The position numbers were made by a program, and so were the translations under genes. Positions 58,449-63,405 of a stretch of 64,000 bases of DNA are shown here, one piece after another. The stretch is from Pseudomonadota bacterium (GTDB taxonomy: Bacteria > Pseudomonadota > Gammaproteobacteria > Xanthomonadales > Rhodanobacteraceae). The notes beneath the pieces were generated by a model, which was given only the letters and a program-made list of their open reading frames with translations, did not search any database and was not told the DNA's origin. Where the stretch lies: NCBI GenBank assembly GCA_021792975.1, contig JAJYTR010000001.1:1-64000 (forward strand). The letters are read 5' to 3'. Numbering within the stretch: the first letter of the stretch is position 1; each line of letters opens with the position of its first letter.

Positions 58449-59668
58449 TGGACAGCAGCACGGCGGCGCCGCATCAGGAGGTCCTTCCCGTCCAGCCGAT
58501 GCTGCACCTCGAACGCGGAGGTGTCCGTTTCGTCCTGCTGGGTACCGCGCATGTGTCCAGGCAGAGCGCCGAAGCCGTACGGGCGCTGCTGGCCGAAGAA
58601 AGTTTCGATGCGGTCGCGATCGAATTGTGCGCCAGCCGCGCCGAAGCGCTGCGCGACCCCGACGCCATGCGCCAGATGGACCTGTTCCGTGTGGTGCGCG
58701 AAGGCAAGGTCGGAATGGTCGCCGCCAGTCTGGCACTGGGTGCATTCCAGCGCCGCATCGCCGAGCGCTTCGGCATCGAACCGGGCGCGGAAATGAAGGC
58801 CGCCATGGACGGCGCGCAGCAGCGCGCCCTGCCCTGTTGGCTGATCGACCGTGAAGTCGGCGTCACGCTCAGGCGGGCATGGCGCGGCGTGGGCCTGCGC
58901 GAGCGCATGCGCATACTCGGCGGTCTCGCCGCGGGCGTGCTCGGCGGCGAAGACACCAGCGAGCATGAAATCGAGGCCCTGAAGCAGGGCGACCTGCTCG
59001 AGGATGCCTTCGGCGAGTTCGCCCGCGATTCGGCCGTGCTTTATCGCAGCCTGATCGAGGAACGCGACGCCTACATGGCCCTGCGCCTGCAGCGGTGCGT
59101 ACAGGAGTCGGCCCAGGTGCGCCGCGTACTCGTGGTGGTCGGGGCGGGCCACCTCGCGGGGCTGGGGCGCCAGCTCGAACAGGCCCGCATCGAGCCCGAG
59201 CGGGAACTGCAGGAACTGGAGCGCATTCCGCCTGCAGCGCGCTGGCCGCGGGCGCTGGCCGTGGGGCTGGTTCTGGCGCTGTTCGCCGTGATCGTCTTCG
59301 CGTTCCTGCGCAGTCCGGCACTGGGCCGCGCGGCCGTCCTGGACTGGATCGTCTACACCGCCGGCTTGGCCGCACTGGGGGGAATCCTGGCCGGAGGTCA
59401 TCCGCTGAGCATCCTCGCCGGCGCGGTGGTGGCGCCGTTCAAGCCCATCCGCATCCTGCCGCCCGGAGCGTTCGCCGCCTTGTCCGAACTGATGCTGCGC
59501 CGTCCGCGCGTGGCCGACTTCGAGTCGCTCAAGCGCGAACTTGCACACTGGCGCGGCTGGTGGCGCAACCGCGTGGCGCGGACATTACTGTTGTTCATGC
59601 TGGTGAATCTGGGTGCGCTGGCGGGCGAATACATCGCCGGCATCCGCATCCTGCGCAGCGTGTTCTAG
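58448..59668 (+). CDS. TraB/GumN-type (pheromone shutdown-like) membrane protein
   Basis: 'RFVLLGTAHVSRQSAEAVRALLAEESFDAVAIELCASRAEAL', 'VVGAGHLAGL', C-terminal TM segments; overlaps aguB stop. Confidence 0.9.
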   Translation: MDSSTAAPHQEVLPVQPMLHLERGGVRFVLLGTAHVSRQSAEAVRALLAEESFDAVAIELCASRAEALRDPDAMRQMDLFRVVREGKVGMVAASLALGAFQRRIAERFGIEPGAEMKAAMDGAQQRALPCWLIDREVGVTLRRAWRGVGLRERMRILGGLAAGVLGGEDTSEHEIEALKQGDLLEDAFGEFARDSAVLYRSLIEERDAYMALRLQRCVQESAQVRRVLVVVGAGHLAGLGRQLEQARIEPERELQELERIPPAARWPRALAVGLVLALFAVIVFAFLRSPALGRAAVLDWIVYTAGLAALGGILAGGHPLSILAGAVVAPFKPIRILPPGAFAALSELMLRRPRVADFESLKRELAHWRGWWRNRVARTLLLFMLVNLGALAGEYIAGIRILRSVF

Positions 59669-60088
59669 CCTGAGCCTGCGCGGCATCCGCGTACGCACGC
59701 CGAACTGGGCCGGCTGTCGCGAACCGGCCAGTACCGGCAGCGAGACGCTCCGGCACCCCACCCGCGCCGGAGTGCACGCGATCAGGCTTGAACGCACGCT
59801 CCGCCCCACCCGGGCGGCAAAGCGGTACCCCTTGCGGCGAGAGGCGCGGACGGCCCGACGCCCGATCCGCAACCGGGGCGCGAAGGCAGGCAGTGCGTAC
59901 AGTCCAGCCCCAGTCGCCCCGCGTCCATCGCTCGCGCAGCACGCTCCCCGCCCCAGCGCATGCCGCCGGAAAGCCGTGATCGGCGCCGCGTACGGCTCGA
60001 AGGCGATGCAGCCCATCCCAGGGCCGACCGAGCGGTCGTGTGTCGGGCGTGTAAGCTGAATGAATACTGAATCATCGGCACGAAGGGC

Positions 60089-60129
60089 TTGCAACGCACA
60101 GAGTTAGTGTTATAGTCATATACAACACC
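60089..60129 (+). promoter_or_regulatory. Putative promoter TTGCAA-N16-TATAGT with dyad operator AGTGTT-N12-AACACC across the -10
   Basis: -35 60089-60094, -10 60111-60116; GTGTT(60107-60111)...AACAC(60124-60128); equivalently AGTG-N16-CACC at 60106-60129. Confidence 0.55.
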
Positions 60130-60159
60130 ACATTAGCAACGCGCCAAAACGGAGCCACC

Positions 60160-60288
60160 ATGTACAGCCGACACCCCCGCACACTGAGCGTCCTGGCCGC
60201 GACGCTGATGACCCTGGCCATGCTGGCCGGAATCCGCGCCGGCTTCGAAGTTCCCCAGGGACGCACCCCCATCCCGCTGGTCCATTGA
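60160..60288 (+). CDS. 42-aa secreted-peptide-like ORF (peptide 1)
   Basis: GGAG RBS at 60151; MYSRHPRTLSVLAATLMTLAMLAGIRAGFEVPQGRTPIPLVH*; signal-peptide-like N-terminus. Confidence 0.65.
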   Translation: MYSRHPRTLSVLAATLMTLAMLAGIRAGFEVPQGRTPIPLVH

Positions 60289-60301
60289 TCCGGAGTCCAC
60301 C

Positions 60302-60433
60302 ATGAACATCGCCCGATTGGCAGTCCTGCTTGCCGCCGCGCTGATGACCGTGCTGATGGTTGCCAGCGTTCGCGCCGGATTCAGCGGCAGCCCGCAGGGC
60401 CCGACGGTGGCTGCACAGACGCGACCGGCCTGA
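60302..60433 (+). CDS. 43-aa secreted-peptide-like ORF (peptide 2, paralogue of peptide 1)
   Basis: MNIARLAVLLAAALMTVLMVASVRAGFSGSPQGPTVAAQTRPA*; shares RAGF and PQGxT with peptide 1. Confidence 0.65.
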   Translation: MNIARLAVLLAAALMTVLMVASVRAGFSGSPQGPTVAAQTRPA

Positions 60434-60445
60434 GGTCCTGCCGCC

Positions 60446-60694
60446 ATGTGCGCCAGAACCGAACTGCTGGCCGCGTTCGCGGCGGTGCTGCTCGCCAGCC
60501 TTTCGCTGGGGGTGGTGCGGGCCGGTTGCGAGGCGGGCGTACTGCAGGACCGGGTTCATGCGGGCACGACGCACCCGGTGCGCACCGGGTGGGCGATGCC
60601 GCATGCCGCCGCGGAAACCAACGATCGCGCCGGCGCCGGCCTGGAAACCGGCATGCCCTACTATTCCTTCGCCGCGCGCAGTCTGCATTTCTGA
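60446..60694 (+). CDS. 82-aa exported protein (peptide 3) with the same N-terminal pattern
   Basis: MCARTELLAAFAAVLLASLSLGVVRAGCEAGVLQDRVHAG... Confidence 0.6.
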   Translation: MCARTELLAAFAAVLLASLSLGVVRAGCEAGVLQDRVHAGTTHPVRTGWAMPHAAAETNDRAGAGLETGMPYYSFAARSLHF

Positions 60695-60706
60695 CGGATC
60701 CCGACC

Positions 60707-61078
60707 ATGAGCGTCACCTGGAACGACAGCGTCCCCATCTACCGTCAGCTGCGCGACCGCGTGGTGGCGATGATCCTCGATGGCGTGCTGAAGGAAGGTG
60801 ATGCGCTGCCCTCGGTGCGCCAGGTGGCAGCCGATTTCCAGATCAATCCGTTGACCGTATCCAAGGCCTACCAGGAGCTGGTGGACGAGACGCTGGTGGA
60901 AAAGCGCCGCGGGCTCGGCATGTACGTCACCGAGGGCGCACGCAGCAAGCTGCTGGGCAGCGAGCGCGAGCGCTTCCTGCGTGACGAGTGGCCCGCCCTG
61001 CTGGAGCGCATCCGGCGCATGGGCCTGGACCCCGCAACCCTGCTCGAGGCCGACGGCCACAAGGAGAACGAGGCATGA
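60707..61078 (+). CDS. GntR family transcriptional regulator, YtrA subfamily
   Basis: 'PIYRQLRDRVVAMILDGVLKEGDALPSVRQVAADFQINPLTVSKAYQELVDETLVEKRRGLGMYV'; short C-terminal domain. Confidence 0.94.
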   Translation: MSVTWNDSVPIYRQLRDRVVAMILDGVLKEGDALPSVRQVAADFQINPLTVSKAYQELVDETLVEKRRGLGMYVTEGARSKLLGSERERFLRDEWPALLERIRRMGLDPATLLEADGHKENEA

Positions 61079-61932
61079 GTGCAGTCATCCAGGCACACGG
61101 CCTGCGCAAGCGGTACCGCAACACCGAGGCCTTGCGCGGTGTCGATTTCACAATCGAGTCCGGACGCATCGTGGGCCTGATCGGCCCCAACGGGGCGGGC
61201 AAGACCACCGCGCTGAAAGCCATCCTCGGCCTCACCGAGTTCGAAGGCCGGCTCGATGTACTGGGGCACGATCCGCGCGTCGGGCGCGAGCGGATGATGC
61301 GCGATGTGAGCTTCATCGCCGACGTGGCCGTGCTGCCGCGCTGGATCCGCGTGCGGCAGGTCGTCGATTTCGTCGCCGGCGTGCATCCACGTTTCGATCG
61401 CGCGCGCTGCGAGGCTTTCCTGGCGCGCACCAAGCTGCTGCAGAACGCGCGCGTACGCGAACTTTCCAAAGGCATGATCGTGCAGCTGCATCTGGCGCTG
61501 GTGATGGCGATCGACGCCCGCCTGCTGGTGCTGGACGAGCCCACGCTGGGGCTGGACCTGCTGTATCGCAAGCAGTTCTACCAGAGCCTGCTCGAGGATT
61601 ACTTCGACGAGCAGCGCACCATCCTGATCACCACCCACCAGGTCGAAGAAATCGAGCATATCCTCAGCGACGTGATGTTCATCCGCGAAGGCAGCATCAC
61701 GCTGCAAAGCGACATGGACAGCTTGGGCGAGCGCTATGCCGAGGTCATGGTCAACCCCGAACAGGGCGACGCCGCGCGCGCATTGAAACCACTGAGCGAG
61801 CGCAGCGTGTTTGGCCGGAGCGTGTTCTTGTTCGATGGCGTCGCGCGCGCGCAGTTGCAGACACTGGGTGAAGTGCGCCGGCCTTCGCTGGCCGACATTT
61901 TCGTGGCCTCCATGCAAGGATCCTACGCATGA
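61075..61932 (+). CDS. ABC transporter ATP-binding protein
   Basis: Walker A GPNGAGKTT, signature LSKGM, Walker B LLVLDEPTLGLD; ATGA overlap with GntR gene. Confidence 0.95.
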   Translation: MSAVIQAHGLRKRYRNTEALRGVDFTIESGRIVGLIGPNGAGKTTALKAILGLTEFEGRLDVLGHDPRVGRERMMRDVSFIADVAVLPRWIRVRQVVDFVAGVHPRFDRARCEAFLARTKLLQNARVRELSKGMIVQLHLALVMAIDARLLVLDEPTLGLDLLYRKQFYQSLLEDYFDEQRTILITTHQVEEIEHILSDVMFIREGSITLQSDMDSLGERYAEVMVNPEQGDAARALKPLSERSVFGRSVFLFDGVARAQLQTLGEVRRPSLADIFVASMQGSYA

Positions 61933-62900
61933 ACACCATGCATTGGCTGCTGAAACGCGAATTCTGGGAACACCGTGGCGGCTTCTTCTGGGCGCCACTG
62001 TGGACGGGCGCGGCGGTGTTGGCGCTCACCCTGCTCGGCCTGTTCGCCGGCGAGGTGCGCATGCTGCAGGCCGGCGACGGCGCATCGAACTCGGCCCTCT
62101 CCATGCTGTTTTTTTCCGAGCAGACGCCCGGGCAGATCGAACACGCTGCCAAACTGCTCAATGGCTCGCTGCTCGGTGTGAACGCGCTGTTCGGCCTGGT
62201 CATGGGCGTCGTGCTGTTTTTCTATCTGCTGGGCGCGCTGTACGACGACCGCAGGGATCGCAGTGTGCTGTTCTGGAAATCGCTGCCCGTATCCGATGCC
62301 GGCACGGTGATCAGCAAGGCGCTGATGGCGACGGTGCTGATCCCGTTCCTGGTGTTCGGCCTGATGCTGGTTACCTGGCTGCTGCTGCAGATCCTGTTCA
62401 GCGTATTCGTACTGATCCATGGCGGCAGCCCGTGGACGCTGATCTGGGGGCAGCACAGCTTGCTGCCGATGCTCGCCGTGATGCTCGCAGACCTGCCCGC
62501 GCACATGCTGTGGAGCCTGCTGGCGGTCGGCTGGTTGCTGTTGTGCTCGGCGGCGGTGCGCAGCAAACCCTTTCTGTGGGCGGTGCTGATCCCCGTACTG
62601 GCTGGTATCGCCAATGGCTGGATCGGCCTGATGGGCGTGCCCAATCTGCCCGCATGGTTCGTGTGGCGCGAAGGCATTGCGCGGATGCTGTTGGGCATGC
62701 TGGGTCTTTACGGCACCTGGGGGCAGACCCGCTCCGTCGGCGACGGGGCATTGCGCAGCGGCAGCATTTTCGGCTGGGAGGCGGCCGGGCGCGGGCTCGG
62801 CGCACTCTATGCGTCGCCGGAGCTGTGGATCGGCGCCCTGGTGGGTATCGCGATGATTGCTGGCGCAGTGTGGTTCCGGCGCCGCAGCAGCGAAGCGTGA
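61929..62900 (+). CDS. ABC-2 type transporter permease
   Basis: MNTMHWLLKREFWEHRGGFFWAPLWTGAAVLALTLLGLF; about six TM segments; ATGA overlap with ATPase gene. Confidence 0.9.
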   Translation: MNTMHWLLKREFWEHRGGFFWAPLWTGAAVLALTLLGLFAGEVRMLQAGDGASNSALSMLFFSEQTPGQIEHAAKLLNGSLLGVNALFGLVMGVVLFFYLLGALYDDRRDRSVLFWKSLPVSDAGTVISKALMATVLIPFLVFGLMLVTWLLLQILFSVFVLIHGGSPWTLIWGQHSLLPMLAVMLADLPAHMLWSLLAVGWLLLCSAAVRSKPFLWAVLIPVLAGIANGWIGLMGVPNLPAWFVWREGIARMLLGMLGLYGTWGQTRSVGDGALRSGSIFGWEAAGRGLGALYASPELWIGALVGIAMIAGAVWFRRRSSEA

Positions 62901-62969
62901 CCGCCCGAACGACTGGTGCTGCTCCATGCAGCGCCAGTCCGACAAAGCCTCAGCAGGTGCCCCGCAAGA

Positions 62970-63377
62970 TCATTTCTTGGTATTCGGTTGCGCCTGCGCG
63001 TTGACCACGGTCAATTTGCCATCGAGCTCGGCATAGCCCTTGAAGCCGAAGGTTACCTGCAGGCCGGCGAACCAGCGCAACTGGGTGTCCTTGACCCCCG
63101 ATTCTCGGCTCGGCTTGAGCAGGACCGTCTTCGGCAGTTTCTTCTGTTCGTCCAGGTAGCGGAAATGGCTGGCCAGGTCTTCGGGCGACAGCAGTGCGCC
63201 ATCCAGCAGGAACTGGCCGTTTTTGTAGGTCTCGAGCGTCATGTCGAAGTGCTGCGGCACGTTGGCCGTGACCGGGGCGCCGCTGCGCACGTTACCGTTG
63301 CAGCCGGCCAGCAGCAGCGCCGCCGCCAGGGTGCCGGCCGCCAGCGTCGCGCGCGGGAAAAGCTTGCGGGATGACAT
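62970..63377 (-). CDS. Putative lipoprotein of unknown function
   Basis: Lipobox in MSSRKLFPRATLAAGTLAAALLLAGCNG. Confidence 0.8.
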   Translation of the reverse strand: MSSRKLFPRATLAAGTLAAALLLAGCNGNVRSGAPVTANVPQHFDMTLETYKNGQFLLDGALLSPEDLASHFRYLDEQKKLPKTVLLKPSRESGVKDTQLRWFAGLQVTFGFKGYAELDGKLTVVNAQAQPNTKK

Positions 63378-63405
63378 CGTGGAAGTACTCCGGAGGATGG
63401 GCATT

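What the first reader, a model, noticed from the sequence alone, without database searches (positions are those of the whole stretch)
60160..62900. Cassette of three short secreted-peptide-like ORFs fused to a YtrA-GntR regulator and an ABC transporter
Seen directly: three consecutive small ORFs precede gntR(ytrA)-ABC ATPase-ABC permease; the last three genes overlap at ATGA junctions. Peptide 1 (42 aa) and peptide 2 (43 aa) both read [short polar/basic N-term]-[hydrophobic]-RA|GF...PQGxT..., and peptide 3 (82 aa) has the same head ending VVRA|GC. Each satisfies a (-3,-1) signal peptidase I pattern (IRA, VRA, VRA), predicting mature peptides GFEVPQGRTPIPLVH, GFSGSPQGPTVAAQTRPA and a 56-residue GCEAGV... 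product. Two of the three fall below the 60-aa ORF cutoff and would be missed by routine annotation. Established: YtrA-type GntR regulators usually autoregulate an ABC transporter operon and often respond to envelope stress or antibiotics. Inference: the peptides are exported signals, toxins/bacteriocin-like products or envelope effectors handled by this transporter, or regulatory leader peptides. I do not recognise a named family for them.
Basis: partly seen in the sequence, partly recalled or inferred. Interest (0 to 1): 0.75.

Follow-up and report, generated by a model that had tools for sequence, protein, structure and literature searches.

The report
Small membrane proteins before a YtrA-ABC operon
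Three tiny genes in front of a YtrA-type repressor and an ABC exporter are real; the third is the local copy of an unnamed small membrane or exported protein that sits at this spot in every sampled relative across a bacterial order, while the first two are extra copies limited to this genus.

Summary
In detail: three small ORFs (p1 42 aa, p2 43 aa, p3 82 aa), then GntR/YtrA, ABC ATPase and ABC-2 permease on one strand, with ATGA overlaps at the last two junctions. One sigma-70-like promoter overlapped by a near-palindrome (60107-60128) precedes them all. p1 and p2 are conserved as coding sequence in the genus, so they are not chance ORFs. p3 proves to be the important one. In 167 of 167 genomes examined from 10 families of the order, a small ORF with an N-terminal hydrophobic helix lies between this operator and the GntR gene. 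In the window's family its tail is MPYYSFG (107 of 107 counting close variants). The same operator-GntR-ABC unit in Oxalobacteraceae has no such ORF (0 of 18). p1 and p2 are tail-less duplicates limited to this genus. No Pfam or NCBIfam family covers the proteins; the nearest precedent is B. subtilis YtrG, a small membrane protein of unknown role at the same operon position. The 'secreted signal/toxin/bacteriocin' reading is not supported. The most likely role is a membrane or periplasmic partner of the exporter (about 0.5). Unexplained: the MPYYSF codons show synonymous-site constraint, which suggests a second, nucleotide-level function.

The parts
60089..60116 (+). sigma-70-like promoter TTGCAA-16-TATAGT, the only one found in 59600-63100
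   Evidence: 1 found against 0.3 expected. TTG at -35 spacing in 145 of 166 relatives.
60107..60128 (.). operator-like near-palindrome GTGTTATAGTCATATACAACAC overlapping the -10 box
   Evidence: Conserved (16-22 of 22 positions) in 167 of 167 order genomes. One copy in the genome at up to 3 mismatches.
60160..60288 (+). p1, 42-aa ORF: hydrophobic head, IRAGF, tail-less duplicate
   Evidence: conserved in genus, pN/pS about 0.63, gaps multiples of 3; SD-like GGAG.
60302..60433 (+). p2, 43-aa ORF: hydrophobic head, VRAGF, tail-less duplicate
   Evidence: conserved in genus, pN/pS about 0.56; SD-like GGAG.
60446..60694 (+). p3, 82-aa ORF: hydrophobic head, VRAGC, variable linker, MPYYSF tail; order-wide small protein
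   Evidence: same position in 167 of 167 order genomes. No Pfam or NCBIfam family.
60653..60673 (+). ATGCCCTACTATTCCTTCGCC, DNA encoding the MPYYSFA tail; string with synonymous-site constraint
   Evidence: Codon choice outlying against 236 control columns. The 14-mer ATGCCCTACTATTC occurs at most once per genome in 37 genomes, each time at this locus.
60707..61078 (+). GntR-family regulator, YtrA type, 123 aa
   Evidence: PF00392 E 1.2e-14. In 117 of 118 family and 144 of 151 order genomes.
61075..61932 (+). ABC transporter ATPase, 285 aa
   Evidence: PF00005 E 4.6e-21. Nearest NCBIfam models PmtA and DrrA, both below cut-off.
61929..62900 (+). ABC-2-type permease, 323 aa
   Evidence: PF13346 weak. 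AlphaFold pLDDT 86. Weak fold matches to ABCG25, NosY, PmtD.

Best explanation
This is one autorepressed transcription unit. A YtrA-type GntR dimer binds the near-palindrome over the -10 box and shuts off p1-p2-p3-gntR-ABC ATPase-permease; when it lets go, the small protein is made first, then the regulator and exporter by coupled translation. p3 is the local member of an order-wide small single-helix protein. Its head holds it in the inner membrane or sends it out, and its conserved tail (MPYYSF in this family) lies in the periplasm. I think it most likely acts as a partner of the ABC-2 exporter, stabilising it or helping it meet its substrate, in the place where B. subtilis has YtrG. p1 and p2 are duplicates of the head that lost the tail, in this genus only. 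Shown: gene order, operator, conservation, coding nature, duplication. Inferred: GntR binding at the operator, topology, and the partner role.
For: ORF present between operator and GntR in 167 of 167 order genomes from 10 families. Hydrophobic head in the ORF frame in 163 of 167, against 2 and 1 in the other two frames. Tail MPYYSF in 107 of 107 family genomes counting close variants, and MPYFSF-like in the second family; f1-f2 profile match E 2e-10, 97% probability, over the tail. One promoter overlapped by the operator, one operator per genome. p1 and p2 share p3's head; sister species carry a long ORF with the p1/p2-type head plus the MPYYSY tail; short head-only copies also occur in genera g11 and g12. 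[quoted passage not shown]
Against: No direct evidence of interaction with the exporter. The same GntR-ABC operon exists without any such ORF in Oxalobacteraceae and some other lineages, so the partner is not generally required. The tail differs between families and most family-to-family profile comparisons show no homology. Synonymous constraint in the tail codons is not explained by a protein role.
Confidence: 0.5

Rival explanations
1. The small ORF is mainly regulatory: an exported nascent chain (or its mRNA) is sensed during translation, and ribosome behaviour near the tail codons sets translation of the adjacent gntR, as in SecM-like leader ORFs.
For: Export head, variable linker, conserved tail within about 20 codons of the stop, stop mostly 1-6 nt before the gntR ATG, and the gntR SD inside the ORF end in 108 of 117 genomes with a recognisable SD. 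Synonymous constraint in the tail codons.
Against: Known cases regulate Sec or YidC components, not a repressor-exporter pair. Duplicates p1 and p2 lack the tail. The tail motif differs between families. In g25 and some others the stop is 50-67 nt from gntR. No consistent mRNA structure hides the gntR SD.
Confidence: 0.17
2. The small proteins are the exporter's substrates or the repressor's effectors: membrane-active peptides that release the GntR protein and are pumped out, as phenol-soluble modulins do with PmtR and Pmt in Staphylococcus.
For: PmtR is a YtrA-type regulator released by the peptides that Pmt exports (PMC5080381). PmtR and PmtA are the second-best and best NCBIfam models here. 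Fast evolution and duplication of the small ORFs.
Against: Scores are far below the PmtR and PmtA cut-offs (52 of 200; 128 of 350). PSMs lack export heads, whereas these ORFs carry them. Effector genes inside the repressed operon would not start induction on their own.
Confidence: 0.13
3. The small ORFs encode secreted signals, toxins or bacteriocins.
For: Short ORFs with hydrophobic heads next to an ABC transporter.
Against: No C39 peptidase on the transporter, no double-glycine leader, no immunity gene recognised, tails of p1 and p2 not conserved, and a gene fixed across a whole order is unlike bacteriocin cassettes.
Confidence: 0.05

Closest known systems
Bacillus subtilis YtrG in ytrGABCDEF
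   [quoted passage not shown]).
   Different: Different phylum and a larger transporter set (YtrBCDEF). Sequence relation not tested. Here most members are 65-165 aa and have a conserved C-terminal tail.
YtrA-subfamily GntR regulators (YtrA, HpaR1, PmtR)
   Same: About 120-aa GntR protein beside an ABC exporter, with a conserved operator over its own promoter.
   Different: HpaR1 of Xanthomonas is described as a global and autorepressing regulator (PMC4730234); orthology was not tested. In this genome only one copy of this operator was found at up to 3 mismatches.
S. aureus PmtR-PmtABCD
   Same: YtrA-type repressor plus ABC exporter with small peptides involved.
   Different: PSMs have no signal sequence (general knowledge) and lie outside the operon. 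Family cut-offs not reached here.
SecM-like exported leader ORFs
   Same: Export head, variable linker, conserved C-terminal motif just before the next gene (resemblance from general knowledge).
   Different: The downstream gene is not a secretion component. No arrest shown. Tail-less duplicates exist.

Membership tests
YtrA-subfamily GntR regulator | GntR winged helix with a very short C-terminal domain, total about 120-130 aa | tested here: met
   PF00392 at residues 12-74 of a 123-aa protein. Best solved relative is a 113-residue GntR chain, 3tqn.
YtrA-subfamily GntR regulator | Long palindromic operator with distant half-sites over its own promoter | tested here: met
   22-bp GTGTTATAG/..TACAACAC over the -10 box in 167 of 167 genomes. 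Binding itself not testable here.
YtrA-subfamily GntR regulator | Linked ABC transporter under the same promoter | tested here: met
   ATPase and permease follow on the same strand in the order loci checked and in the window.
YtrG (B. subtilis) | Small transmembrane protein placed before ytrA in the operon | tested here: met
   Position and hydrophobic head in 163 of 167. AlphaFold helix at residues 4-24 of a homolog.
YtrG (B. subtilis) | Sequence homology to YtrG | not tested
   YtrG sequence not at hand; no Pfam or NCBIfam model matched.
Pmt PSM exporter | NCBIfam PmtR and PmtA equivalog cut-offs | tested here: not met
   52 bits against 200 and 128 bits against 350.
SecM-like arrest leader | Export head and conserved C-terminal motif directly upstream of the regulated gene | tested here: met
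SecM-like arrest leader | mRNA structure that hides the SD of the next gene | tested here: inconclusive
   Predicted folds vary and SD pairing is not consistent.
SecM-like arrest leader | Ribosome stalling at the motif | not testable with these tools
   Needs toeprinting or ribosome profiling.
Bacteriocin cassette with dedicated ABC exporter | C39 peptidase domain or double-glycine leader | tested here: not met
   The ATPase shows ABC_tran and general P-loop ATPase models but no peptidase-C39 model. No double-glycine leader in p1-p3.

The most novel reading that the evidence does not exclude
The order-wide small ORF is a translation-time sensor: the exported chain and the specific tail codons together control translation of the neighbouring repressor, so that membrane or export stress is read out by the ribosome and switches an ABC exporter. 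This would explain both the conserved tail peptide and the unusual synonymous constraint in its codons.
Probability: 0.15. Interest if true: 0.8.

Novelty: new variant of a known kind. Interest (0 to 1): 0.5.

Why it matters
YtrA-type ABC operons are widespread markers of envelope stress, and the role of the small membrane protein in the best-studied one (YtrG) is still open. Here is a second, independent case in a whole order of Gram-negative bacteria. It comes with a conserved tail to mutate and a natural control group (Oxalobacteraceae) that has the same repressor, operator and transporter but lacks the small gene. That makes the role of such proteins directly testable.

Tried and rejected
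RNA element: no Rfam match, and a UGCC...GGCA hairpin at the tail codons is absent in several genera, including the window's, that keep the codons. Multi-copy DNA site: the 14-mer occurs at most once per genome, at this locus. Programmed +1 frameshift at CCC-U: the phase to gntR varies (stops at -3, -4, -5), so no fixed product. TonB-box-like reading of the LPxVxVRP motif: recalled resemblance only, not pursued. HpaR1 operator match: the GTGT(N15-20)ACAC motif in PMC6430473 is described there as the Clp site, so it is not used as support. Sequence-based PDB search with the permease profile gave nothing. Structure of the p3-type protein: low confidence outside the head and one strand-helix motif. 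Key primary papers on X. citri YtrA and B. subtilis YtrA were not held. A profile of the family protein finds strong matches only at this locus in family genomes.

Full report
WHAT IS THERE. The window carries p1 (60160-60288), p2 (60302-60433), p3 (60446-60694), a 123-aa GntR regulator (60707-61078), an ABC ATPase (61075-61932) and a permease (61929-62900), all on the plus strand, with ATGA overlaps at the last two junctions. The GntR protein matches PF00392 and the ATPase PF00005; the permease matches an ABC-2 family weakly; p1-p3 match nothing significant in Pfam or NCBIfam. A single sigma-70-like promoter, TTGCAA-16-TATAGT, is found in the region (1 against 0.3 expected), and its -10 box lies inside the near-palindrome GTGTTATAGTCATATACAACAC at 60107-60128. 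That site occurs once in the genome at up to three mismatches. No Rfam family matches. The simplest reading is one transcription unit under one operator.

ARE THE SMALL ORFS GENES. p2 finds p1 in its own genome with E 0.001 (57% identity). Seven genomes of the genus keep the three-ORF layout. pN is below pS in 21/21, 20/21 and 20/21 pairs for p1, p2 and p3, with median ratios 0.63, 0.56 and 0.70; the GntR gene gives 0.17. Divergence is highest at third codon positions, and gaps in unguided DNA alignments of p1 and p2 are all multiples of three. These ratios are modest because synonymous sites are near saturation, so this is evidence for coding with weak constraint, not strong purifying selection. 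The PQGxT string shared by p1 and p2 is not kept in relatives, and residue -1 of the proposed cleavage site varies in p2 and p3-type ORFs (A, G, S, T, V, M) while the next Gly is always there. Cleavage is therefore unproven; a membrane anchor is equally possible.

THE WIDER PATTERN. The GntR gene is found in 117 of 118 family genomes and 144 of 151 order genomes. I fetched the locus from 167 genomes of 10 families and looked between the operator and the GntR start. Every one has the operator (16-22 of 22 consensus positions) and a small ORF; the one apparent exception, G165, has it in another frame, ending in MPYYSFGNRTGGVEP. The hydrophobic head is present in the ORF frame in 163 of 167 and almost never in the other frames. 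In the window's family, whose named relatives include Dyella, Rhodanobacter, Luteibacter, Dokdonella and Tahibacter, the tail is MPYYSF in 107 of 107 counting close variants. A second family has MPYFSFA, two others MPFFSFG and WPFFSFG, and further families have unrelated hydrophobic or basic tails. Profile comparison supports homology between the first two families (E 2e-10, over the tail) and between families f8 and f10 (E 3e-9), more weakly between f1 and f8 (81% probability, over the head); the rest cannot be joined by sequence. In 18 of 18 Oxalobacteraceae loci with the same operator, GntR and ABC genes, the operator sits 44-103 nt before GntR and no small ORF fits. Some other lineages also lack it. 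So the core unit is operator-GntR-ABC, and the small gene is a constant extra in this order.

p1 AND p2. Sister species of the genus have a two-ORF version in which the long ORF has a p1/p2-type head (VRSGF, VRMGF) and the MPYYSY tail. Genera g11 and g12 carry a short head-only copy. The cassette in the window is therefore a local expansion by duplication and tail loss.

AN UNEXPLAINED CONSTRAINT. In the window's family the tail codons are unusually fixed: CCC 93% (background 23%), the second Tyr TAT 90% (25%) although the first is TAC 99%, Ser TCG 78% (23%), Phe TTT 53% (12%) (genus-weighted). Against 236 conserved-residue codon columns in GntR and ATPase, only 2, 5, 8 and 10 columns are as extreme. 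The 14-mer ATGCCCTACTATTC occurs at most once per genome, at this locus. In the second family the codons are freer. A hairpin, a repeated binding site and a programmed frameshift were each considered and do not account for it.

MECHANISM. Autorepression through the operator follows from position and from YtrA-family knowledge (PMC12772383, PMC8060467, PMC4730234); binding was not tested. The order-wide presence, the head and the fixed tail fit a membrane or periplasmic partner of the exporter, in the position of YtrG, whose function is also unknown. The PmtR-PSM system shows that peptides can be effectors of a YtrA-type repressor (PMC5080381), but family cut-offs are not reached and those peptides lack export heads. 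A translation-time sensor is kept as the most novel open reading because of the anatomy and the synonymous constraint. Structure prediction gave a helical head and a strand-helix motif at moderate confidence, with a disordered tail; the permease model is confident and resembles ABC-2 exporters only weakly.

LIMITS. The window's genome is a 76%-complete assembly in 101 contigs. GTDB family and genus labels come without names for most genomes. HpaR1 orthology was not tested. Nucleotide tests treat related genomes as partly independent; genus weighting reduces this but does not remove it.

Noticed in passing
window 60653-60673 and homologs in the family: Codons of the MPYYSF tail are nearly fixed at synonymous sites, with disfavoured codons preferred; this points to a nucleotide-level function that was not identified.
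   Followed up: partly
L322:1859-2347 (minus strand): A separate exported-looking protein in a related family carries three repeats of the LxxVxVRPxxxxL motif that occurs once or more in the order's small proteins; the G123 locus (L323) gave a similar profile hit.
   Followed up: partly
L239, L240, L259, L276, L277, L279, L292, L297, L299, L304, L306, L308-L312, L314, L315: Massilia, Duganella, Janthinobacterium and related genera have the same operator, GntR (about 72-80% identical) and ABC genes but no small ORF: a natural control group.
   Followed up: yes
L016:1005-1481, L231: Some homologs have two or three copies of the LPxVxV(R/T)P motif in the linker; L231, outside the order, has the motif without the MPYYSF tail.
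   Followed up: no
window 62970-63386 (minus strand): Lipoprotein-like ORF (LLLAGC) downstream, with no family match above cut-off.
   Followed up: no
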